A stretch of 36,807 nucleotides of DNA from JBBIPZ01 sp037442505 [NCBI: Deltaproteobacteria bacterium]. Lineage in GTDB: Bacteria > CALINM01. Within the stretch, counting starts at the first letter, position 1. Each line of letters begins with the position of its first letter. The translations under genes were made by a program, and so were the position numbers. The notes beneath the pieces are model-generated. The model made no database searches, had not been told where the DNA came from, and saw only the letters and a program-made list of their open reading frames with translations. The stretch lies in assembly GCA_037442505.1 (NCBI GenBank), contig JBBIPZ010000021.1, positions 1-36,807 of the forward strand. The letters are read 5' to 3'. Below, in pieces: positions 23,077 through 35,651 of the stretch.

Positions 23077-24231
23077 CTATTGTTTTAGTAACTGTTTAAT
23101 TGCTTCCTCTATGCCTGAAACTGTTAAAGGAAACATAGGGAATATTTTGCCTATTGCCATAACAGTTTGGTGTTGCCATTGTATATAAGATATTGGATTT
23201 AACCATACAGAACTACGAAAATAGTTTTTCAGCAACCTTAACCATTCTATACCTGTTTTTCCTTTCTTTTCGTAACGATAAATCATCTGCCATGAGTTAT
23301 GAAGCTCGTAAGGAGACATTAGCGCATCGCCTATTAATATAACCTTCCATTCAGCGTTAAAATCCTTAAAAAGCCTTTCTGTTGGTATTTTCCTTTCATT
23401 TTCCATGTCTTCATAAACAAAATCATATAGGCAGTTATGAAAATAATAGTGTTTAAATTCCTTAAAATAGTTAAGTCCTTTCGCTATCGAAAACAGCTTT
23501 TCAACCCTGTCCTGATGAATTTCCATCGAGCCACCATTGTCAATAAGTAACAAAAGTTTTACATTATTTTTTCGTTCTTTTGTGAAAACAATTTCGATTT
23601 CCCCAAAATTCTCGGCTGTTTTTGTTATAGTAGCATCAATATCAACTTCTTCTTCTCGACCAACATTCTGAAAATTTCGTAGTTTTTTTAATGCAATACC
23701 AATATTTCTTGCATCAAGAAACACATCTTCTCTTAAATTTTTAAACTTTCTTTGGGTTGCTACCATAAAAGCCGCATTGTGATGTGAGTCGCCACCAATT
23801 CTTACCCCATCCCTTTTTGCCCCGGCATTACCAAAAGGTGAGTAGCCTTTTTGTCCTATGTGTCTTCCTCCACCACTGTGTCTGTCTTTTTGATTTAAAA
23901 GCCTTTCTGTTAAACGATTTAAAATCTCGTCTATTCCAAGTTTTTCAAAAAAGATTGATTCATTGGATTTCAATCCCTCTTCCATAAATGAAAGTATCTC
24001 TTCCAATCTTTCGTTAAGATCACCCCCAGCCGTCACAAAATCAAGATAGGCTTTATCATAAATATCATAAAGTTTTTCTGATTTGACAAGCACCTTCTTA
24101 CCCTTAAAGTAAAGGTCGTCTAAATTCTTAATCTCACCGATAGCAAGAAGTTTATACAGATCTAACCATTCTTTTGTGGTTACCTTGATTCCATACTGAC
24201 GCAAAAGATAAAAAAAACTTAGTATAGTCAT
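23077..24231 (-). CDS. VWA-domain protein of the CoxE type, partner of MoxR
   Basis: A 384-residue protein whose C-terminal half (about 220-384) is a von Willebrand A domain with the metal site LLLIDNGGSM (a DxGGSM variant of DxSxS). The N-terminal half is helical and contains a glycine/histidine-rich linker near residues 118-140. CoxE-like proteins work with the MoxR AAA+ ATPase encoded just upstream (nine bases), usually to insert metals or cofactors or to remodel complexes. The client here is unknown; no CO dehydrogenase or methanol dehydrogenase genes are nearby. Confidence 0.85.
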   Translation of the reverse strand: MTILSFFYLLRQYGIKVTTKEWLDLYKLLAIGEIKNLDDLYFKGKKVLVKSEKLYDIYDKAYLDFVTAGGDLNERLEEILSFMEEGLKSNESIFFEKLGIDEILNRLTERLLNQKDRHSGGGRHIGQKGYSPFGNAGAKRDGVRIGGDSHHNAAFMVATQRKFKNLREDVFLDARNIGIALKKLRNFQNVGREEEVDIDATITKTAENFGEIEIVFTKERKNNVKLLLLIDNGGSMEIHQDRVEKLFSIAKGLNYFKEFKHYYFHNCLYDFVYEDMENERKIPTERLFKDFNAEWKVILIGDALMSPYELHNSWQMIYRYEKKGKTGIEWLRLLKNYFRSSVWLNPISYIQWQHQTVMAIGKIFPMFPLTVSGIEEAIKQLLKQ

Positions 24232-24240
24232 AATGCTTTG

Positions 24241-25074
24241 TTAAAAATGTGCATAATATTTCTTGATATAATCCAAATCTTGCTCCTTTTTTAATAAAGT
24301 ACCAGGGAAAGGCAGATTTTTGATAGAAAGCTTTTTTCCATCATACGCAGAAATCATAAGTACACGTATCCAGTCCAATAACTCACTTGTGGATGGCTTT
24401 TTCTTCAATTCATCTATCTTCCTTATCTGATAAAAGAGTGTAAGGGCATTCTCAAGCAGTTCTTTATGTATGTCAGGAAAGTGAACTTCAACAATCTCTT
24501 TCATTATCTCGTAATCAGGAAAAGCGATATAGTGAAAAACACAGCGGCGTAAAAAAGCATCTGGCAAGTCTTTCTCCGAATTACTTGTTATAATAACTTG
24601 AGGACGATGTTTAGCCTTTATAGTCTCGTTTGTTTCTGGAATATAAAAAGACATTTCATCCAATTCATTAAGCAGATCATTCGGGAATTCAATATCCGCC
24701 TTATCTATCTCGTCAATCAGCAACACAGCCCTTTTTTCAGACATAAAGGCTAAGGCAAGCTTCCCAAACTTTATATACTGCTTAATATTACTGATATCTC
24801 TATCGTGGAAGCGCGCATCATTAAGCCTTTGAACTGTATCGTAAAAATACAATCCATCTTTAGCCTTCGTTGTTGATTTAATATTCCAAACAAAAAACGG
24901 CATATCCAATGATTTTGCGATACTCTGGGCAAGCATCGTTTTACCGGTACCCGGTTCACCTTTTATAACGAGAGGTTTCTCAAGGGCAAGCGATATGTTA
25001 ACAGATTCAATAAGTTCTGGAGATGCTACGTAATCACTACTTCCTTTAAATTTTGGTTTGCCTTCAAAAATCAT
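24241..25074 (-). CDS. MoxR family AAA+ ATPase
   Basis: A 277-residue ATP-driven chaperone. Walker A GEPGTGKTML (about 38-47), Walker B AVLLIDEIDKAD, sensor ITSNSEKDLPDAFLRRC with the arginine finger, and a C-terminal lid. It is three bases after hemW and nine bases before the VWA partner gene, the usual MoxR-VWA pairing. Which protein it matures cannot be told from its neighbours. Confidence 0.92.
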   Translation of the reverse strand: MIFEGKPKFKGSSDYVASPELIESVNISLALEKPLVIKGEPGTGKTMLAQSIAKSLDMPFFVWNIKSTTKAKDGLYFYDTVQRLNDARFHDRDISNIKQYIKFGKLALAFMSEKRAVLLIDEIDKADIEFPNDLLNELDEMSFYIPETNETIKAKHRPQVIITSNSEKDLPDAFLRRCVFHYIAFPDYEIMKEIVEVHFPDIHKELLENALTLFYQIRKIDELKKKPSTSELLDWIRVLMISAYDGKKLSIKNLPFPGTLLKKEQDLDYIKKYYAHF

Positions 25075-26186: not shown

Positions 26187-26816
26187 CTATCTGCTTTCTG
26201 AAATTTTAGAAGCTGCCATGCCTCCAGAAAGGATAAGAGAAAACGCATCTTCAACACTTAAATCGCTCTCTAATATCAGACTTTTATCGATACTTATCAA
26301 AAACCCTGATGTAGGATTAATTGCTGTTGGAACGTAAACATAGTAGCTTTTTTTGCCATCAACATTTGAAATTGTCTCCCCTGTCAAAAAACCGATTGCA
26401 TATACATCCCTGTGAGGAAATGGTACTAAAACAACTCTCTTATATTTCTGTTCTTCATTTTTTATAAAAGAGCCTGTCATTTTCTTAACAGACAGGTAAA
26501 CCTGTTTTGAAATAGGAAACAAAGTGAACACCTTTTCTACCACATGCATAAGCGTATTCCCAAAGTATTGACGAGACAAAAAACCTATCAGTATAAGAAA
26601 AACCAAACATAATAGAGCCCCGACACCCGGATATGCAAAGAATTTGCTAACGATTGGTGGCAAATCAAATATTTTCATTATGTCCTTGATGATGTTATCA
26701 AAAAATGTAACTATTTTTAGCAGTACAATTACTGTTATATAAAATGGGACAAAGGTAGCTATACCAAATAAAAGGTACTTCTTAATGTTGTTTTTCAAAA
26801 AATGAAAGAGCTTCAT
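26187..26816 (-). CDS. DUF502 family membrane protein
   Basis: A 209-residue inner-membrane protein with two hydrophobic segments at about residues 13-35 and 56-80, then a soluble domain with YVYVPTAINPTSGFLISI, the hallmark of DUF502. The biochemical function of the family is unknown. Its start lies 35 bases inside the end of the amidohydrolase gene, behind an AAAGGAA ribosome site, so translation is probably coupled. Confidence 0.88.
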   Translation of the reverse strand: MKLFHFLKNNIKKYLLFGIATFVPFYITVIVLLKIVTFFDNIIKDIMKIFDLPPIVSKFFAYPGVGALLCLVFLILIGFLSRQYFGNTLMHVVEKVFTLFPISKQVYLSVKKMTGSFIKNEEQKYKRVVLVPFPHRDVYAIGFLTGETISNVDGKKSYYVYVPTAINPTSGFLISIDKSLILESDLSVEDAFSLILSGGMAASKISESR

Positions 26817-27999
26817 CTTTAAATTCCTTTTGATAAACTATCGGCACAACATCTTCAGTTAAAACAGCTTCTAAAGCGTTTTTGCTATCACATTTTATAG
26901 GAAAAAACAAGAAACTACAAACATCCCCCACCTCAATCCCGACACCCTTGAGCTTAAATAAATCCCTTCCTTTGTATGTGATGGCATCTATTATCTTTGA
27001 CAAAGCTTTTTTGTCTTTTATATTTTTATACATCAGTTTAGCATCTTTAAGTATATCAAAAACTTTATTTGTCCTTTCGCTATCAGTACCCAACATAAAG
27101 TTTACATTTGTCGAAACAACATAATCAAAATTTGGCAGCTTGTTTTTCCAGAACATATTACTGTTCGGACAAAAAACAGCAGTTATTCCTCTTTCTTCGA
27201 CCTTCTGCCAATCTTTCTCTTCTAAATTAACACAATGAACAATGAAAGTGTCTTCTCCCAACTCAAGAAAGTCAATTATATCTGCATAGCTACTAAAATT
27301 AAGCTGTTCAAAATTAATATTGTTAAAAATTTTTTTGAATCCAGTAACGTCATTTTTAAAAAATAAGTTATCTTCGAATTCTGTCTCGGCAAGATGAATC
27401 ATAATAGGCAATCTTTTACTCCGTGCGAACCTGACAACTTCTCTGGCTTTTGAAAACGGCGTTGTATAAAGACTATGAATAGAAATGCCTGAAGTAAAAT
27501 TAGTGTACTTTTTTGAAGAATCTAAAAAACTCTGAAAAGCATCAAGTTTTTGCTGAAAAAGATCCTCTGTATAACCTAAAACTTCAAAAAAAATTATACC
27601 CCTCATAAAATTAAAAAAACTTCCCTCTGGTAGAACGGATCTAACATCTCCAGCGACAGAAACTCCTGATTTATAAAGTAACAATTCTTCTTGAACAAGA
27701 TTGTTTTTAAAGGCGTCCGAAGATAGAGCTTTTTTATATTTAATCGTATCTAAAATCCAATCCCACAGCTCTTTTTTGCTTTCATCGCTATCCTTTGAAC
27801 TCCCAAGCTCAAGATGTGTATGCCCATTAACCAGAGAAGGCAACACCATTCCATCCAACTCATAATATTTGTCGACAATTTCTAAATTACTTTTGTCTGT
27901 ATATATAGCTGACACTATGTCATCTTTAACTTCTAAAAAAACATTTTCCCTTAAACCACTCCTCGTCAAAATAAGACGACATTTAAAAACCTTAATCAC
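26782..27999 (-). CDS. Amidohydrolase, candidate aminodeoxyfutalosine deaminase
   Basis: A 405-residue metal-dependent hydrolase of the ATZ/TRZ (SsnA/MtaD-like) group. The metal ligands are visible: H60 and H62 (NGHTHLELG), a histidine in [11 protein letters not shown], a histidine in FIVHCVN and an aspartate in LGTDSE. The HLAET variant and the context-free size resemble the adenosine-type deaminases used in the futalosine menaquinone pathway, but 5'-methylthioadenosine or S-adenosylhomocysteine deamination are real alternatives. No mqn gene is in the window, so the substrate is not settled. It overlaps panD by four bases. Confidence 0.75.
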
Positions 28000-29216: not shown

Positions 29217-30011
29217 TTATTTATAAATGTGATTTTCCGCAGGAAATTTACCTGTTTTTACCTCATTAATATAGTCCCTTGCGGCACGATCAATCAACGA
29301 TGCAAGATCGAAGTATCTTTTGACAAATTTTGGGCGATGACCTTCAAAAAGCCCTATAATATCATTAATTACGAGCACCTGACCGTCGCAAAATCTTCCT
29401 GCACCAATGCCAATTGTAGGAACATTAACAGATTCTGTAATCTCTCTGGCAACATCCTCTGGCACACATTCCAAAACCATAGAGAAAGCGCCTGCCTTTT
29501 CAAGTGCCTTTGCACTCTCAATCAGTTTTCTTTTCGGTTCATCACCCTTGCCCTGAACTTTATATCCACCCAAAATGTTAACAAACTGTGGAGTAAGCCC
29601 AATATGCCCCATAACAGGAATGCCCATTTTAGTCAATGCATTTACAGTTTCTGCAATCTCTATTCCACCTTCAAGTTTGACTGCTTCTGCACCTGCCTTC
29701 AACATTAAACCACAATTTTTTATAGCATCTTCCTTTGAAGTCTGGTAAGACAAAAAAGGCATATCTGAGACTACAAGGGCGTTTTTTCTTGCCCTTACCA
29801 CAGCCTTTGTGTGATATAAAATTTCTTCAACAGTAACAGGAAGGGTATTCTCATATCCCGAAAATATTGGACCAACAGAATCCCCAACAAGCAAGATATC
29901 AATACCACTTCTATCAAGTAACAATGCCATAGAATAGTCATAAGCAGTTAGCATTGTTATCTTTTCGTTATTTTTCTTTTTTTCTAACAAAACAGGCACC
30001 GTTATCTTCAT
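29217..30011 (-). CDS. panB: Ketopantoate hydroxymethyltransferase
   Basis: First committed step of pantothenate synthesis: adds a hydroxymethyl group from methylene-tetrahydrofolate to ketoisovalerate. Metal and substrate residues are in LLVGDSVG, the catalytic-side stretches are VKLEGG and VMGHIGLTPQ, and GIGAGRFCDGQVLV is a further signature. At 264 residues it is full length. A strong TAGGAGGGAG ribosome site precedes the ATG, directly after a terminator-like hairpin. It is the first gene of the pan operon. Confidence 0.97.
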   Translation of the reverse strand: MKITVPVLLEKKKNNEKITMLTAYDYSMALLLDRSGIDILLVGDSVGPIFSGYENTLPVTVEEILYHTKAVVRARKNALVVSDMPFLSYQTSKEDAIKNCGLMLKAGAEAVKLEGGIEIAETVNALTKMGIPVMGHIGLTPQFVNILGGYKVQGKGDEPKRKLIESAKALEKAGAFSMVLECVPEDVAREITESVNVPTIGIGAGRFCDGQVLVINDIIGLFEGHRPKFVKRYFDLASLIDRAARDYINEVKTGKFPAENHIYK

Positions 30012-30027
30012 AGCTCCCTCCTAAAGA

Positions 30028-30064
30028 AAAAGCCTTCAAGACGAAAAGAGTCCTGAAGGCTTTT
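30028..30064 (-). terminator. Terminator hairpin in the panB leader
   Basis: On the minus strand a stem with 11 paired bases (AAAAGCCTTCA with TGAAGGCTTTT) plus three further pairs after a mismatch encloses a short loop and is followed by TTTTTCTTT. It ends just before the panB ribosome binding site, so it would stop or reduce panB transcription unless disrupted. Confidence 0.7.
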
Positions 30065-30083
30065 AATATATCAACAAAAACTA

Positions 30084-30100
30084 CCCTTCACTCTTCCGTC
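30084..30100 (-). promoter_or_regulatory. Candidate antiterminator segment of the panB leader
   Basis: On the minus strand this 17-base segment (GACGGAAGAGTGAAGGG) can pair with the 5' arm and loop of the downstream terminator: CCTTCA, CTCTT and CGTC all match, with bulges of three and about one base. About 15 pairs could form, which would break the terminator. Just upstream, CTTGG and CCGAG could form a small hairpin (around 30101-30117). This is the layout of an attenuator; the signal is unknown. Confidence 0.55.
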
Positions 30101-30134
30101 TCGGTCTATATCCAAGATCCAAGCGGCTAATAAA

Positions 30135-30163
30135 ATGTTAACTCTTTAAATCTGATCTGTCAA
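30135..30163 (-). promoter_or_regulatory. Promoter of the pan operon
   Basis: On the minus strand TTGACA (30158-30163), a 17-base spacer, then TAACAT (30135-30140). This is close to the sigma-70 consensus. Transcription would begin near 30128, giving a leader of about 115 bases before panB. Confidence 0.7.
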
Positions 30164-30319: not shown

Positions 30320-32209
30320 TCATTGAAAAGAAAGTTTTAGTTCGTAGATTTCTGCCTCTCGCCTCTTTTCAATTATAAAACCTTTCTTTTCAAATAAATG
30401 AAGCATGGGTTTATTGCCTATAAGAACCTGTGCAGTAAAACCAAGTAACCCCTTCTTTCTGGCTAAAAATGTGATATAACTTAAAAGCTCCCACCCTACA
30501 CCTTTGTTTTGATAATCATCCCTGACAACAAACGCCACTTCAGCTGTATGAGAATTTTCATCGATAAAGTACTGGGCTATGCCCAAAACTACCTCTAAAC
30601 CATCAATTTGGGTAGTTGCAAGTATGACAAGTTCCTTAGTGTAATCTACAACGCAATATTTCTGTAGCTCTTCGTGGTGCATTTCTCTTCTCATATTGAC
30701 AAATCGCGAATACACAGTATCGTCTGATAGTGAGTAGAAAAAGTCTTTTAAGATATGTTCATCCGTTATCTTTACCGGTCTTAACAGTATTTGCAAGCCT
30801 GTTTTTGTGGTTCTATATGTTTCCAACGAAGCTGGATATTCTCCTTTATCTCCAGATAAAAACGCCTGATCTTTATAAATTAAACTTGAAGCCTTTGCCT
30901 GATCAATCAGCCATTGTCTAAATTTCGGATGAGCAATTGATATCAGTTCTATAGCCCTTTCTCTTATATTTTTCCCGTGTAGATATGCGATGCCATATTC
31001 AGTTACAACATAATGAATATCACTCCTTGTTAGCGTGATACCAGCACCCTCTTTTAAAAACGGAACAATTCTCGAAATAGTGCCATTTTTAGCAGTTGAT
31101 TGCATGGCAAGAATTGTCCTTCCTCCAGTAGAAAGAACTGCCCCTCGCATAAAGTCGGCTTGTCCACCAACACCACTATAAAAAATCTTTCCCAACGATT
31201 CGGCAGTCGCCTGCCCAGTCAAATCAATCTCAAGAGCGCTATTGATTGCCACCATATTACGATTTCTTGCTATATTTAATGGATTGTTTGTATAATTAAT
31301 GGGTCTAAACTCAAATGCAGGATTGTCATGAAGATACTCATAAACTTCTCTGTGAGCCATACAGAACGATGCAACAGTTTTTCCTCTATTTAAATCCTTC
31401 CTGCTGTTATTAACAACACCTAACTTCATCAGATTCACAACACCTTCTGTTAACAGCTCAGTGTGAATCCCGAGGTCATTTTTCTCCTTCAAATGAGCAA
31501 GGACCGCATTAGGCACAGCACCATATCCTACCTGTAATGTGTCACCATCTTTAATAATCTTGCTAACATTATTACCAATTCGTTCTGCAATATCGTCTGA
31601 GACCGTCAAACCATACTCTAACAAAGGTTCGTCAAAGTAAACTAAATAGTCAATTTGGTCAATATGGAGAAAAGTTTCTCCATGAACACGCGGCATATTG
31701 GCATTGACCTGTGCAATAACAATAGAAGCCTTTTCAACAGCAGCCTTGACAATATCTACACTGATCCCCAGACTAAAAAATCCATGCGCATCAGGCATAG
31801 AAACCTGTATTAGCGCTACATCAATAGGTATTAGTTTGCGGGCTATCAAATCAGGCGCCTGAGATAGAAAAATCGGCGTATAGTCAGCCAAACCACTGTT
31901 TATTGCCTCCCTCGAACTTTTACCAATAAAAAAGGCGTTATGTCTAAAGTTATCCTTAAACTTTTCGTCTGAATAAGGTGCTACCCCTAATGTTACTACC
32001 TGTAGCACCTCTGCATCAAAAAAAGCCTTTGGATTTTCCTGAACGTACTTAATTAGAGATTGCACCAAAAAAACTGGTTCTGCACAGGCAGTGCCAACAA
32101 AAATATGGCATCCCGGTTGAATCTTTTTGAAGATAGATTTAAGCGAAACAAATTTATCAGGGTATCTTGCTTGATACTCATGAAGCCTTTCTCTTGCACA
32201 TTTGTCCAT
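30320..32209 (-). CDS. Acetyl-CoA hydrolase/CoA-transferase fused to a GNAT domain
   Basis: A 629-residue cytoplasmic fusion. Residues 1-460 are a CoA-transferase of the acetyl-CoA hydrolase/4-hydroxybutyrate CoA-transferase group; the likely catalytic glutamate is in SALEIDLTGQATAES and the glycine-rich YSGVGGQADF follows. Residues about 475-629 form a GNAT acetyltransferase with the acetyl-CoA loop VRDDYQNKGVGWELL. The reaction probably moves CoA between acetate or another short acid and a second acyl-CoA; the GNAT part may acetylate the enzyme or a partner (inference). No ribosome site is seen at the start. It follows tupC by 45 bases and may be read from the tup transcript or from its own weak promoter. 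Confidence 0.88.
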   Translation of the reverse strand: MDKCARERLHEYQARYPDKFVSLKSIFKKIQPGCHIFVGTACAEPVFLVQSLIKYVQENPKAFFDAEVLQVVTLGVAPYSDEKFKDNFRHNAFFIGKSSREAINSGLADYTPIFLSQAPDLIARKLIPIDVALIQVSMPDAHGFFSLGISVDIVKAAVEKASIVIAQVNANMPRVHGETFLHIDQIDYLVYFDEPLLEYGLTVSDDIAERIGNNVSKIIKDGDTLQVGYGAVPNAVLAHLKEKNDLGIHTELLTEGVVNLMKLGVVNNSRKDLNRGKTVASFCMAHREVYEYLHDNPAFEFRPINYTNNPLNIARNRNMVAINSALEIDLTGQATAESLGKIFYSGVGGQADFMRGAVLSTGGRTILAMQSTAKNGTISRIVPFLKEGAGITLTRSDIHYVVTEYGIAYLHGKNIRERAIELISIAHPKFRQWLIDQAKASSLIYKDQAFLSGDKGEYPASLETYRTTKTGLQILLRPVKITDEHILKDFFYSLSDDTVYSRFVNMRREMHHEELQKYCVVDYTKELVILATTQIDGLEVVLGIAQYFIDENSHTAEVAFVVRDDYQNKGVGWELLSYITFLARKKGLLGFTAQVLIGNKPMLHLFEKKGFIIEKRREAEIYELKLSFQ

Positions 32210-32254: not shown

Positions 32255-33340
32255 TCAAATCTTCTCTATAATATGAACAGATGTAGCCTTGAATCCAGCT
32301 ACTACTTCATCTCCAATTTTAAGTGAAAGCTCGTTAAAGGATGTTTTTGTTATGTAAGATACCAGGTTAAAATTGCAGTTAATAGCAATTCTATAAAAAT
32401 GCCCCATATTTGTTATATCCCTAACCTTTCCCTTAAAATGATTTCTTACGCTTGTCTTTATGTTGTTGCCATCACGAGTTATAAAGACATTTTCAGGTCG
32501 TATAAAAAGATAAATTTTTGAGCCTTCTTCAAAACTACCCATGACATTGACAAGTCTACCCTGAACTTCAATGATATTTTCCCCATCTCTTTTCTCCAAT
32601 ACGCTGCCTTCTAATATATTTTCTACACCTGCAAAGGAAGCTACAAAATTATTTTTTGGATGATGAATAACTTCATCTTTAGGTCCATCCTGTATAATCT
32701 TGCCATTTTCCATAACTATTATACGTTCTGGAAGCCGTAATGCCTCATATTTATCGTGAGTTATCATTATTGTAGTGATTTGGTTATCTTTTATTATTTT
32801 CCCCATATCGGAAAGTATCTCTTCCTTTGACGCAGAATCTATATTCGTAAAAGGCTCATCAAGAAAAAGGATTTCTGGTTCTATTATTAATGCCCTTGCT
32901 ATGCACACCCTTTTTGCCTCGCCACCTGACAAATTTTTTGCCCTTCTATCCCTAAGTTCAAAAATTTTCAACAGTTTAAGTGTATTTTCGACTTTATCTT
33001 CTAAGACTTCTCTCGGCAATTTTCTAAATTTAAGACCAATAGCAACGTTTTCAAAGACTGTGGTTTCTAAAAAAAGGTTTTCCTGAAAAAGTATGGCAAT
33101 TTTTTTTCTGTAATCTTTATCTTTTATATTTCTTTCTATCTCCATATTTCGATAATAGATAACACCCATAGAAGGCTTGACAAGAGATGCAAGAATAAGC
33201 ATTAGTGTTGTTTTCCCTGCTCCATTTTCTCCGATGATAGAGACTATCTCACCCTGATTGATTTGTAAATTCTCAATATTAACAATTTCTCTGTTTTTAA
33301 CCCTATGAATGATGTTTCTGGCTTCTAAAATTTTATTCAT
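32255..33340 (-). CDS. tupC: Tungstate/molybdate ABC transporter ATP-binding protein with TOBE domain
   Basis: Energises oxyanion import. The ATPase domain (about 1-235) has Walker A GENGAGKTT, signature LSGGEAKRV, Walker B ILFLDEPF and the switch histidine in IMITHDK. The C-terminal 120 residues resemble a TOBE oxyanion-binding domain, which in molybdate transporters shuts down import when the cell is replete. It overlaps tupB by eight bases. Molybdate cannot be excluded as substrate. Confidence 0.88.
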   Translation of the reverse strand: MNKILEARNIIHRVKNREIVNIENLQINQGEIVSIIGENGAGKTTLMLILASLVKPSMGVIYYRNMEIERNIKDKDYRKKIAILFQENLFLETTVFENVAIGLKFRKLPREVLEDKVENTLKLLKIFELRDRRAKNLSGGEAKRVCIARALIIEPEILFLDEPFTNIDSASKEEILSDMGKIIKDNQITTIMITHDKYEALRLPERIIVMENGKIIQDGPKDEVIHHPKNNFVASFAGVENILEGSVLEKRDGENIIEVQGRLVNVMGSFEEGSKIYLFIRPENVFITRDGNNIKTSVRNHFKGKVRDITNMGHFYRIAINCNFNLVSYITKTSFNELSLKIGDEVVAGFKATSVHIIEKI

Positions 33341-34037
33341 GCCTGGAAATACTTGATTGTTGAATTTTTGTAAGGATCATATTTATTGAAAAGCTTAGTA
33401 AAAGCAACACAATACCATAAGCGAGTGCAAAATCAAAATTTCCTTTACCTGTTTCTGTAACTATCGCCGTTGTTAAAACCCTTGTGTATCCTTTAATGTT
33501 TCCACCTACCATCATAGATGCACCAACCTCTGAAATGATCCCACCAAAACCAGCCATTATGGCTGATAAAATTGGCAACTTAAGTTCTCTAATCATTATA
33601 AGATAAAGCTGTAACCTGCTTGCACCAAGACCTAACATTTGAAGCTTAAATTTCTCAGAAAAACCCTGAAATGCAGAAAGGCTTATCCCCAAGATGATAG
33701 GGGTGGCTAAAATGATCTGGGCAATTATTATTGCGGCTGGTGTGTATAATAAATCTAACTTACCTAAAATACCATTACGCCATAAAAGAATTGTTATAAA
33801 AAGACCTACCAAAACGGGTGGCATGGCCATGCCAGTGTTTATGAACGTGATTAATGTATTTTTAAATCTAAACTCCTTTGATGATATGTATAAAGCCGTG
33901 GTAATACCAACGATACTACTTGCCAATATTGCTATGGTGGATATTTTTAGTGATAGCCATAAAATCTGGTAGGTTTCTCTATCGAGATTACATATCAGTT
34001 CTAAGGCTTTTGTTATTGAATCAATTAAAAGTTCCAT
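33333..34037 (-). CDS. tupB: Tungstate/molybdate ABC transporter permease
   Basis: A 234-residue inner-membrane protein with about five or six membrane segments. The cytoplasmic coupling loop is around GLGASRLQLYLIMIRELKLP, followed by GFGGIISEVGASMMVGGNI, typical of TupB. It follows tupA by one base and overlaps tupC. Confidence 0.9.
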   Translation of the reverse strand: MELLIDSITKALELICNLDRETYQILWLSLKISTIAILASSIVGITTALYISSKEFRFKNTLITFINTGMAMPPVLVGLFITILLWRNGILGKLDLLYTPAAIIIAQIILATPIILGISLSAFQGFSEKFKLQMLGLGASRLQLYLIMIRELKLPILSAIMAGFGGIISEVGASMMVGGNIKGYTRVLTTAIVTETGKGNFDFALAYGIVLLLLSFSINMILTKIQQSSISRHE

Positions 34038-34038
34038 A

Positions 34039-34869
34039 TTACTTTATTGTGTCAACCGCATCAGGGAAAAAAAGTGGTGAGCCAAATCTATCCACACCAA
34101 AAGTTTTTATAATCTTCTGAACTTCTTTTGATACAAAAAAATCTGCCAATGCCCTTGCACCGACATGGTTTATGTTTGAAAACCTCTCTGGATTAATTTC
34201 TATTACGTGGTAGATATTTTTCAGTTCTTCGTCTCCTTCCTTCAAAATCTGTAAGATTAAATTTCTTTTTAATGCAAGATAGGTGCCTCTGTCTGAAAGC
34301 GTGTATCCATTTTTTTCATTTGCCACACTAAGAGTTTGTCCCATTCCACTACCTGTTTGCTGATACCACCTTTCCTTATCTGGATATTTCCCTATGATTT
34401 TCCAGATGTTCAGCTCCTTTACATGAGTACCAGAGTTATCTCCACGGGATATAAAAAGCGCTCTTTGTTCAGCCACTCTTTTGAACGCTTCTTTAATAGA
34501 ACGGGAGTTTTTTACATTTGCGGGGTCTTCTTTAGGACCCAACAAAACAAAATCGTTATGCATAACCCTTCTTCTGTTAATACCATAACCAGAGTTAATG
34601 AATTTTATTTCCGCTTCTGGAGAATGCACCAATAAGATATCGGCTTCTCCACGTTTTCCAAGCATAAGCGCCTGTCCAGAACCTACGGCTATTGTTTTTA
34701 CAAAGTACCCTGTTTTCTTTTCAAATAAAGGGATTAAAACATCAAGGAGCCCTGAATCTTGAGTACTTGTTGTTGTAGCAAGTATTATGGTGTTTTTCGT
34801 TGCATATAACTCTTTGATAGCAAAAATATAAAGCAAAAAAATTAAGAAAACATTAGCAAACCTTTTCAT
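34039..34869 (-). CDS. tupA: Tungstate-binding periplasmic protein
   Basis: Captures the oxyanion in the periplasm for TupBC. A signal peptide covers residues 1-23 (basic MKR, hydrophobic core, cleavage after LYA). The mature start contains the TTTSTQDSGLL motif (32-42) that is the signature of TupA and separates it from ModA and WtpA. Further family stretches are SRGDNSGTHVKE and YTLSDRGTYL. The family is known for preferring tungstate over molybdate. It overlaps the modE-like gene by four bases (ATGA). Confidence 0.92.
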   Translation of the reverse strand: MKRFANVFLIFLLYIFAIKELYATKNTIILATTTSTQDSGLLDVLIPLFEKKTGYFVKTIAVGSGQALMLGKRGEADILLVHSPEAEIKFINSGYGINRRRVMHNDFVLLGPKEDPANVKNSRSIKEAFKRVAEQRALFISRGDNSGTHVKELNIWKIIGKYPDKERWYQQTGSGMGQTLSVANEKNGYTLSDRGTYLALKRNLILQILKEGDEELKNIYHVIEINPERFSNINHVGARALADFFVSKEVQKIIKTFGVDRFGSPLFFPDAVDTIK

Positions 34870-35651
34870 AAAATCTTACCCACAATTACATCTGATGCCT
34901 TAAAAATCGCAAAAACTTTTGACCCTATTTTTAACACCATATCTTCACAGCTATCTTTCGTTATAACAGCGGTTAGTATATTTCCCCCTTTCAATGTTAC
35001 AATGACTTCATTGTTTACAGCACCAGTATTAATTTTTAAAATCTCTCCCTCAAGTTTGTTGGATGCACCAATCTTTATACAATCTAACATAGGCATCAAG
35101 ATTACCGATGAAGCCTTTACTAATGCGATTAAATCATCACCTAATTTGATGTTTAGTCTTTTTAAGCTATCCTTTGTTATAACTGCAGATATTCTATCCT
35201 CACCTTTTATACCCATTATAATTTCAGAATTGACTGCTCCCTTTTTTATCTCTAAAACTTTACCACCAAACTGGTTTCTTGCACTTGTCTGCAATGAAAA
35301 TCGTCTTATAAGCTTTATGTTATCCTGTATCAAATCTGGATTTTCAAAAATTGAGCTTAAGTTTTGTTCTAAATTTTTATAAAAATTTATCAGTTCTTTT
35401 CCTTTCTCTGTAACTCTCGAGCCACCGCCCTTTTCTCCACCTGCTATACTCTCCACGAGTGGCACATCGGATAAATTGTTCATATCTTTTATAGCATCCC
35501 ACGCTGCTTTATAACTCATCTTAAGTGATTTAGCTGCCTTAGAAATAGAGCCATATTCATCAATCTTTTCCAGCAGTTTGATTCTGCCAAGACCGATAAA
35601 ATGCTTGTTTTGTGTTTCTATCCAGACCTTACTTTTAATTTTGTAATCCAT
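34866..35651 (-). CDS. modE: ModE-like oxyanion-responsive regulator with two TOBE domains
   Basis: A 261-residue transcription regulator. Residues 1-105 are the winged-helix DNA-binding domain (IDEYGSISKAAKSLKMSYK), followed by the ModE signature TSARNQFGGKV at 122-132. Two TOBE/Mop repeats at about 125-187 and 195-260, each with an AVITKDS stretch, would bind molybdate or tungstate. It is the first gene of the tup operon, so it probably represses that operon when the metal is plentiful. The symbol is by homology; with TupA next door, tungstate sensing is possible. No ribosome site precedes the ATG. Confidence 0.9.
   Translation of the reverse strand: MDYKIKSKVWIETQNKHFIGLGRIKLLEKIDEYGSISKAAKSLKMSYKAAWDAIKDMNNLSDVPLVESIAGGEKGGGSRVTEKGKELINFYKNLEQNLSSIFENPDLIQDNIKLIRRFSLQTSARNQFGGKVLEIKKGAVNSEIIMGIKGEDRISAVITKDSLKRLNIKLGDDLIALVKASSVILMPMLDCIKIGASNKLEGEILKINTGAVNNEVIVTLKGGNILTAVITKDSCEDMVLKIGSKVFAIFKASDVIVGKIL

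What the first reader, a model, noticed from the sequence alone, without database searches (positions are those of the whole stretch)
30012..30163. panB leader looks like a transcription attenuator or riboswitch
Seen: a near-consensus promoter, a leader of about 115 bases, a strong terminator hairpin ending directly before the panB ribosome site, and an upstream 17-base segment that can pair with about 15 bases of the terminator's 5' arm and loop. The two pairings exclude each other. A small upstream hairpin (CTTGG/CCGAG) could be part of a sensor. Known: a pan RNA motif exists upstream of pantothenate genes in other bacteria; I cannot tell whether this is a distant member. No leader peptide rich in valine or leucine codons is visible. 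Inference: pantothenate, CoA or a precursor may control the whole eight-gene operon through this RNA.
Basis: partly seen in the sequence, partly recalled or inferred. Interest (0 to 1): 0.66.

Follow-up and report, generated by a model that had tools for sequence, protein, structure and literature searches.

The report
Vitamin B5 operon RNA off-switch
The start of this vitamin B5 operon's messenger RNA is a one-hairpin member of the known "pan" RNA family, and comparisons suggest that when its hairpin is held shut a stop signal forms before the genes; what it senses is still unknown.

Summary
In detail: before panB lie a promoter, a leader of about 117 nt, a strong intrinsic terminator and a competing pairing. 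The "small upstream hairpin" is a pan motif RNA (Rfam RF01749). Rfam's two-hairpin model gives it 35.2 bits, just under its 36.2 cut-off; a one-hairpin model built from 26 Bacillota-type pans finds it at 40.4 bits, E 1.2e-10. Three related genomes share the layout: one pan hairpin 8-11 nt after the -10 box, terminator, panB.

The pan 3' arm and flank are complementary to the terminator, so a full antiterminator must open the hairpin. At the decision point the two forced folds differ by at most 1.1 kcal/mol in all four leaders. Across 90 pan RNAs the arm pairs better with its own terminator than with others' (p 1.1e-6; control p 0.38). I infer an OFF switch: whatever stabilises the hairpin terminates transcription of the eight-gene operon.

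The effector, metabolite or protein, is not shown. Rfam's model overlooks many pans: it matches 40 of 345 genomes of one phylum, mine 137 of 345; 22 extra loci inspected lack a convincing first hairpin. A new member of a known, still orphan, class.

The parts
30158..30163 (-). -35 box TTGACA
   Evidence: 10 of 12 promoter match; same box and 17-nt spacing in three relatives
30135..30140 (-). -10 box TAACAT; transcription inferred to start near 30128
   Evidence: start site inferred, not measured
30096..30126 (-). pan hairpin CCGCTTGGATC-ttggatata-GACCGAGACGG: 10 pairs and two bulged A's (sensor element)
   Evidence: RF01749 35.2 bits; one-hairpin model R2, built without the window's clade, 40.4 bits, E 1.2e-10; arms identical in three relatives
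30085..30103 (-). antiterminator 5' strand: pan 3' arm plus 3' flank
   Evidence: 19 pairs with 30059-30037; swap and shuffle tests
30037..30059 (-). antiterminator 3' strand: terminator 5' arm, loop and start of its 3' arm
30028..30064 (-). intrinsic terminator hairpin, 15 pairs, running into the T tract
   Evidence: two pairs changed on both sides in relatives (within that call's shuffles, 218 of 500)
30017..30022 (-). ribosome binding site AGGAGG of panB
   Evidence: sequence
29217..30011 (-). panB
   Evidence: TIGR00222
28356..29207 (-). panC
   Evidence: TIGR00018
27996..28352 (-). panD
   Evidence: TIGR00223
26782..27999 (-). amidohydrolase (aminofutalosine deaminase-like, below that model's cut-off)
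   Evidence: PF01979; NF006269 135 bits, cut-off 320
26187..26816 (-). DUF502 membrane protein
   Evidence: PF04367
25078..26184 (-). HemW-like radical SAM protein
   Evidence: TIGR00539 215.8 bits, cut-off 205.4
24241..25074 (-). AAA ATPase, MoxR/MadB-like
   Evidence: PF07728; NF047784 107 bits under a cut-off of 475
23077..24231 (-). last gene of the operon, VWA-like (label from reading; only a weak domain match)
   Evidence: NF041121 44 bits under a cut-off of 200; no Pfam match

Best explanation
It is a pan-class cis-regulatory RNA of the one-hairpin type that works by transcription attenuation. The hairpin lies 8-11 nt downstream of the -10 box, so the RNA should begin almost at it. When RNA polymerase has made the terminator's loop and part of its 3' arm, the leader can fold in two ways of nearly equal energy. 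In one, the pan hairpin stays closed and the terminator can complete. In the other, the pan 3' arm and flank pair with the terminator, which opens the hairpin, and polymerase reads on. An effector that binds and stabilises the pan hairpin (a product such as pantothenate or CoA, or an RNA-binding protein that senses it) would favour termination and lower expression of the eight-gene operon; without it, read-through. Shown by computation: pan membership, promoter position, terminator, competing pairing, conservation. Inferred: that the pairing switches in the cell, the OFF direction, and the effector.
For: RF01749 hit of 35.2 bits on the window, and 46.7, 45.7 and 39.4 bits in three relatives, 3 of the 3 held genomes of that small phylum. 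R2, built from Bacillota-type pans only, finds the window at E 1.2e-10, third of 11 matches in 34 sources of 332 kb. Promoter 8, 11, 11 and 10 nt before the hairpin in the four leaders. Decision-point energies, antiterminator forced / pan forced / unconstrained: window -22.5/-23.6/-23.6; L070 -21.8/-21.1/-24.3; L071 -21.6/-20.7/-23.2; L072 -24.7/-24.2/-26.1 (L070 and L071 are the DNA of L001 and L002). Prefix folding shows the antiterminator displacing the pan hairpin in 3 of 4 leaders. Terminators follow 90 of 93 distinct pans (shuffled 65 of 279) and 53 of 53 in a second set (shuffled 21 of 106). Own-terminator pairing beats swaps: n 90, p 1.1e-6, upstream control p 0.38; second set n 53, p 0.011, control p 0.37. 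Linked changes: where a terminator word could be read (35 of 90 loci), arm A goes with T in 10 of 10, arm G with C in 19 and T in 6 of 25, Fisher p 4.4e-5. Altered basal triplets in L169/L170, L172 and L186 are matched in both the pan 5' arm and the terminator.
Against: Among the four close leaders alone the antiterminator shows no covariation beyond shuffles (270 of 500 as high), its inner five pairs hold in only 50% of cells, and partners slid by +1 to +3 columns give higher covariation scores. The first test of the second set was not significant (n 19, p 0.08; its control p 0.057). Over the full 110 nt downstream only 10.8% of 93 loci are in the best 5% of swaps. The Fisher test leaves out 55 of 90 loci without a readable word. 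In the window itself the unconstrained fold keeps the pan hairpin and forms only the flank part of the antiterminator. Energies are equilibrium values for a kinetic process. The loci are related, so p-values are rough. No RNA-seq or binding data.
Confidence: 0.82

Rival explanations
1. A pan RNA whose effector is an RNA-binding protein rather than a small molecule; the protein (possibly an enzyme or sensor of the CoA pathway) clamps the hairpin and causes termination. This is a version of the best explanation, not an alternative to attenuation.
For: Weinberg 2010 suggested a dimeric protein-binding motif from the simple structure and tandem arrangement (passage). The element is tiny (31 nt here) with two bulged A's.
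Against: One hairpin is all there is here and apparently in many other genomes, which weakens the dimer argument. No candidate protein was found; co-occurrence was not searched.
Confidence: 0.55
2. A pan RNA that binds pantothenate, CoA or a precursor directly, that is, a true riboswitch. Also a version of the best explanation.
For: Many downstream genes are pantothenate synthesis genes or possible uptake genes. The two forced folds differ by at most 1.1 kcal/mol, which a modest binding energy could tip.
Against: Very small conserved core. Still an orphan: 'switch ?' in the 2010 table, and a 2022 review names CoA as lacking a known riboswitch (passages).
Confidence: 0.3
3. A constitutive attenuator or plain terminator that only sets expression level; the pan hairpin is a passive 5' stabiliser.
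For: Pan hairpin plus terminator is the minimum-energy fold at full length in all four leaders.
Against: The arm-to-own-terminator match across 90 and 53 loci and the conservation of the hairpin's bulges are not needed for a passive element.
Confidence: 0.08
4. Leader-peptide attenuation (valine or leucine codons).
For: None found; panB draws on the valine pathway (general knowledge).
Against: The only leader frames I saw by eye are two to six codons, not rich in Val or Leu and not shared with relatives (read; no frame scan was run on the leaders).
Confidence: 0.01

Closest known systems
pan motif RNA, Rfam RF01749 (Weinberg et al. 2010, PMC2864571; passages seen)
   Same: Stem with two conserved bulged A's and a GAUC/GAC core, before panB-panC-panD; the window's 22 arm letters are identical to those of other pans, e.g. 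L112, L119, L125.
   Different: One transcribed hairpin at the very 5' end of the RNA instead of the usual tandem pair; score just under Rfam's cut-off; a terminator/antiterminator, which the passages of the 2010 paper that I saw do not describe for pan.
OFF-type transcriptional riboswitches and protein-controlled attenuators (e.g. PyrR/pyr leaders; recalled)
   Same: A sensor stem (anti-antiterminator) excludes an antiterminator and so favours an intrinsic terminator.
   Different: The sensor's own 3' arm is part of the antiterminator strand; effector unknown; RF00515 PyrR scores 19.7 bits against a cut-off of 54 here.

Membership tests
pan motif RF01749 | Score at or above the gathering cut-off of 36.2 bits | tested here: not met
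   35.2 bits, E 2.3e-4. Three relatives with identical arms score 46.7, 45.7 and 39.4, over the cut-off. Rfam's first stem is poorly matched here.
pan motif RF01749 | Stem interrupted by two conserved bulged A residues | tested here: met
   10 of 10 pairs, both A's; R2 40.4 bits, E 1.2e-10
pan motif RF01749 | Upstream of panB, panC or panD | tested here: met
   panB, panC, panD follow
pan motif RF01749 | Tandem arrangement ('most', not all, members) | tested here: not met
   No first hairpin in the 110-120 nt upstream; the promoter occupies the place where Rfam's first stem was aligned. The source says 'most', so this does not exclude membership.
Transcription attenuator | Intrinsic terminator before the first gene | tested here: met
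Transcription attenuator | Mutually exclusive antiterminator, conserved | tested here: met
   not supported by covariation among the four closest leaders alone
Transcription attenuator | Read-through that changes with a signal | not testable with these tools
   no expression data
Riboswitch | Direct binding of a small molecule | not testable with these tools
   no binding data; orphan class

The most novel reading that the evidence does not exclude
The pan class is a metabolite-sensing OFF switch for pantothenate or CoA, a major cofactor without a known riboswitch, and the one-hairpin form found here is its minimal unit: a hairpin of about 31 nt whose own 3' arm doubles as part of the antiterminator.
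Probability: 0.28. Interest if true: 0.8.

Novelty: new member of a known kind. Interest (0 to 1): 0.5.

Why it matters
Pan RNAs were described in 2010 and my searches found no effector for them since. The comparisons give the class a concrete mechanism and direction (hairpin closed = termination), a minimal one-hairpin form convenient for assays, and a ready read-out (truncated against full transcript) for finding the effector. They also suggest that Rfam's two-hairpin model overlooks many one-hairpin pans.

Tried and rejected
Considered and rejected: trpB, PyrR or Phe leaders (all far under their cut-offs) and T-box (no match listed); leader peptide (no shared frame seen by eye); terminator of the upstream gene (a promoter lies between).

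Led nowhere: the window's own genome is not held; the relatives' phylum holds only three searchable genomes. The pair count on four leaders was too thin to test the antiterminator. The lineage could not be named: the nearest titled record is 'Proteobacteria bacterium isolate SKW176'.

Errors and limits of mine: model R1 had brackets shifted by one column and was not used; R2 replaces it. In some searches and 65 locus L166 was read at the wrong offset because its contig ends early; I took it for a false hit (note 3) and dropped it, but it is a real pan. The 113 loci include that misplaced stretch. L129, a duplicate of L128, was dropped, leaving 93 of 94 loci. The automatic terminator finder sometimes took another hairpin than the obvious one (e.g. 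L085, L099, L159). The first-hairpin scan has a false-positive rate of 58 of 470 at its loose setting and misses variant first hairpins that I see by eye in L164, L173, L176, L180 and L181, so 'single' counts in other groups are upper bounds.

Full report
WHAT IS THERE. On the minus strand before panB there is a promoter (30163-30135), a hairpin (30126-30096), an intrinsic terminator (30064-30028), a ribosome site (30022-30017) and the panB start at 30011. Eight genes follow with tiny gaps or overlaps: panB, panC, panD, an amidohydrolase, a DUF502 protein, a HemW-like protein, an AAA ATPase and a last, VWA-like protein. In the relative L001, panB, panC, panD, the amidohydrolase and the DUF502 gene follow in the same order; its hemW-like match lies upstream, reversed.

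WHICH RNA. A gathering-threshold Rfam search of the window finds nothing. With permissive filters the only match better than E 1 is pan, RF01749, 35.2 bits against a cut-off of 36.2, E 2.3e-4. The nearest relatives by PanB among the 69 loci returned (78% and 76% identity) score 46.7 and 45.7 at the same place, and a third genome of that small phylum scores 39.4. All 22 arm letters of the hairpin are identical in the four and identical to those of other pans such as L112, L119 and L125. To test membership without Rfam's two-hairpin layout I built model R2 from 26 hairpins of a Bacillota-type sample only. Those rows were chosen by a pairing scan, so the 97.6% paired cells are biased upward; the 18 cells with both sides changed exceeded all 500 shuffles. 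R2 finds the window at 40.4 bits, E 1.2e-10 in 332 kb.

ONE HAIRPIN AT THE TIP OF THE TRANSCRIPT. Most described pans are tandem (Weinberg 2010, passages). Here the promoter boxes lie where Rfam's first stem was aligned, and the -10 box ends 8, 11, 11 and 10 nt before the hairpin in the window, L070, L071 and L072 (L070 and L071 are the DNA of L001 and L002). The RNA should therefore begin at the hairpin. No first hairpin was found upstream in these four.

THE SWITCH. The pan 3' arm and flank, CGAGACGGAAGAGUGAAGG, pairs with the terminator's 5' arm, loop and start of its 3' arm (19 pairs, -21.7 kcal/mol; terminator alone -21.4). Because the pairing uses the hairpin's own 3' arm, a closed pan hairpin and a full antiterminator exclude each other. 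In this clade the arm itself meets mostly the terminator's loop and 3' arm: its best duplex overlaps the 5' arm by only 2 to 6 nt. Folding growing transcripts, the antiterminator displaces the pan hairpin in L070, L071 and L072 before the terminator is complete; in the window the best fold keeps the hairpin with the flank part of the antiterminator. At the decision point the forced antiterminator and forced pan states differ by 0.5 to 1.1 kcal/mol in the four, and the unconstrained fold lies at most 2.5 below the forced antiterminator and at most 3.2 below the forced pan state. At full length pan plus terminator wins in all four. So stabilising the hairpin should mean OFF. This direction is an inference.

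IS IT GENERAL? I examined 94 pan loci: the window, its three relatives, and 90 from a sample of the phylum of an Eubacteriales genome in which 151 of 398 genomes matched RF01749. The 90 were the 30 fetched with that call, the best-scoring genomes, and 60 others that I picked from the listed places. Ninety of 93 distinct loci have a terminator within about 160 nt, against 65 of 279 shuffled stretches. The pan arm pairs better with its own terminator than with those of the other loci: n 90 (the three without a terminator dropped), mean gain 1.9 kcal/mol, p 1.1e-6; without the window's clade n 86, p 8.6e-6; an upstream control stretch p 0.38. For the full 110-nt downstream stretch only 10.8% of 93 loci are in the best 5% of swaps and 31% in the best 5% of shuffles, so the signal is broad rather than strong at each locus; the duplex met the terminator's 5' arm by 4 nt or more in 68 of 90. 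A letter test used only the 35 of 90 loci with a readable terminator word: arm A with T 10 of 10, arm G with C 19 and T 6 of 25, p 4.4e-5. In a second set, a first 19 loci from the phylum of a Syntrophales genome gave p 0.08 with control 0.057, inconclusive. A larger set of 60 loci (that phylum plus 11 from the genomes), of which 53 were kept as distinct and with enough downstream DNA, gave p 0.011 with control 0.37, and 53 of 53 had terminators against 21 of 106 shuffled. Telling cases: L172 has basal triplets UGG/CCA in place of CCG/CGG and a terminator reading UUCUGGUC; L169/L170 and L186 show the same three-way matching. In the window's own clade alone the antiterminator count shows no covariation beyond controls; the terminator has two pairs changed on both sides, also within shuffles (218 of 500).

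RFAM'S MODEL OVERLOOKS MANY PANS. In a 345-genome sample of the phylum of a Syntrophales genome, RF01749 matches 40 genomes and R2 matches 137 at E 0.001; both runs used stricter filters. Of 35 genomes with relatives of this PanB, RF01749 matches none; with the three close relatives added, R2 matches 17 of 38, of which G028, G029 and G037 have weak E-values (2e-4 to 5e-4) and are probably chance. I inspected 22 loci that R2 found and RF01749 did not: 21 show no first hairpin and one (L186) a weak match; 21 of 22 have TTGAC within the 75 nt upstream (read). The other extra matches were not inspected. R2 is calibrated on little sequence, so weak matches are uncertain.

WHAT IT MIGHT SENSE. The first recognised match after the RNA in 113 loci: DUF2520-like Rossmann protein 52, panB 36, panC 12, BASS-type transporter 4, ECF S component 3 (one of these, L087, over 1.1 kb away), none of these 6 (Pfam on one representative of each non-pan group). 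One of the six, L121, is a BioY-family protein; the B. [quoted passage not shown] The common denominator seems to be pantothenate supply. A 2022 review (PMC9971707, passages) names CoA as lacking a riboswitch. The 2010 table gives pan as 'switch ?' in Chloroflexi, Firmicutes and delta-Proteobacteria.

IN PRINT? Searches for pan motif with riboswitch, panBCD, orphan riboswitch, RF01749, attenuation, Term-seq and antiterminator (two searches listed only part of their hits) found pan named in Weinberg 2010 and in RNA-seq papers (passages of PMC4342826, PMC4634765, PMC5670726). I found no description of its terminator mechanism or effector. Naville and Gautheret 2010 and the 2020 orphan riboswitch review PMC7266159 do not hold the word pan in their main text. 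Supplements were not read and subscription papers are not held, so this is not proof of absence.

VERDICT. It is a pan RNA, one-hairpin type. The mechanism is well supported by comparison; the effector is open.

Noticed in passing
L081, L105, L117, L134, L139 and others (gene after pan): A Rossmann plus DUF2520 protein is the commonest first match after pan RNAs (52 of 113; Pfam on L081 only). By position beside panB/panC it may be a ketopantoate reductase-like enzyme; the one literature search made (12 of 85 listed) showed no paper on this in its titles.
   Followed up: partly
L108, L110, L114, L152: Pan RNA before BASS-family (SBF) transporters (Pfam on L114), possibly ketopantoate or pantoate transporters of PanS type (name recalled).
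   Followed up: partly
L121, L153, L157: Pan RNA before a BioY-family gene (L121) and ECF S-component genes (Pfam on L153), candidates for pantothenate uptake.
   Followed up: partly
L132, L144: Pan RNA before genes like OPT oligopeptide transporters (Pfam on L132 only): an odd regulon member that might point to uptake of a CoA-related compound such as a pantetheine conjugate.
   Followed up: no
window 30320-32209 minus: Gene upstream of the operon fuses an acetyl-CoA hydrolase/transferase with a GNAT acetyltransferase domain.
   Followed up: no
window 34866-35651 minus and 32255-34869 minus: ModE-type regulator with Mop domains beside what looks like a tungstate/molybdate ABC transporter set (transporter genes read from the ORF translations only).
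   Followed up: no
window 26782-27999 minus: Aminofutalosine-deaminase-like amidohydrolase inside the pan operon, below that model's cut-off; a menaquinone-pathway link is possible.
   Followed up: no
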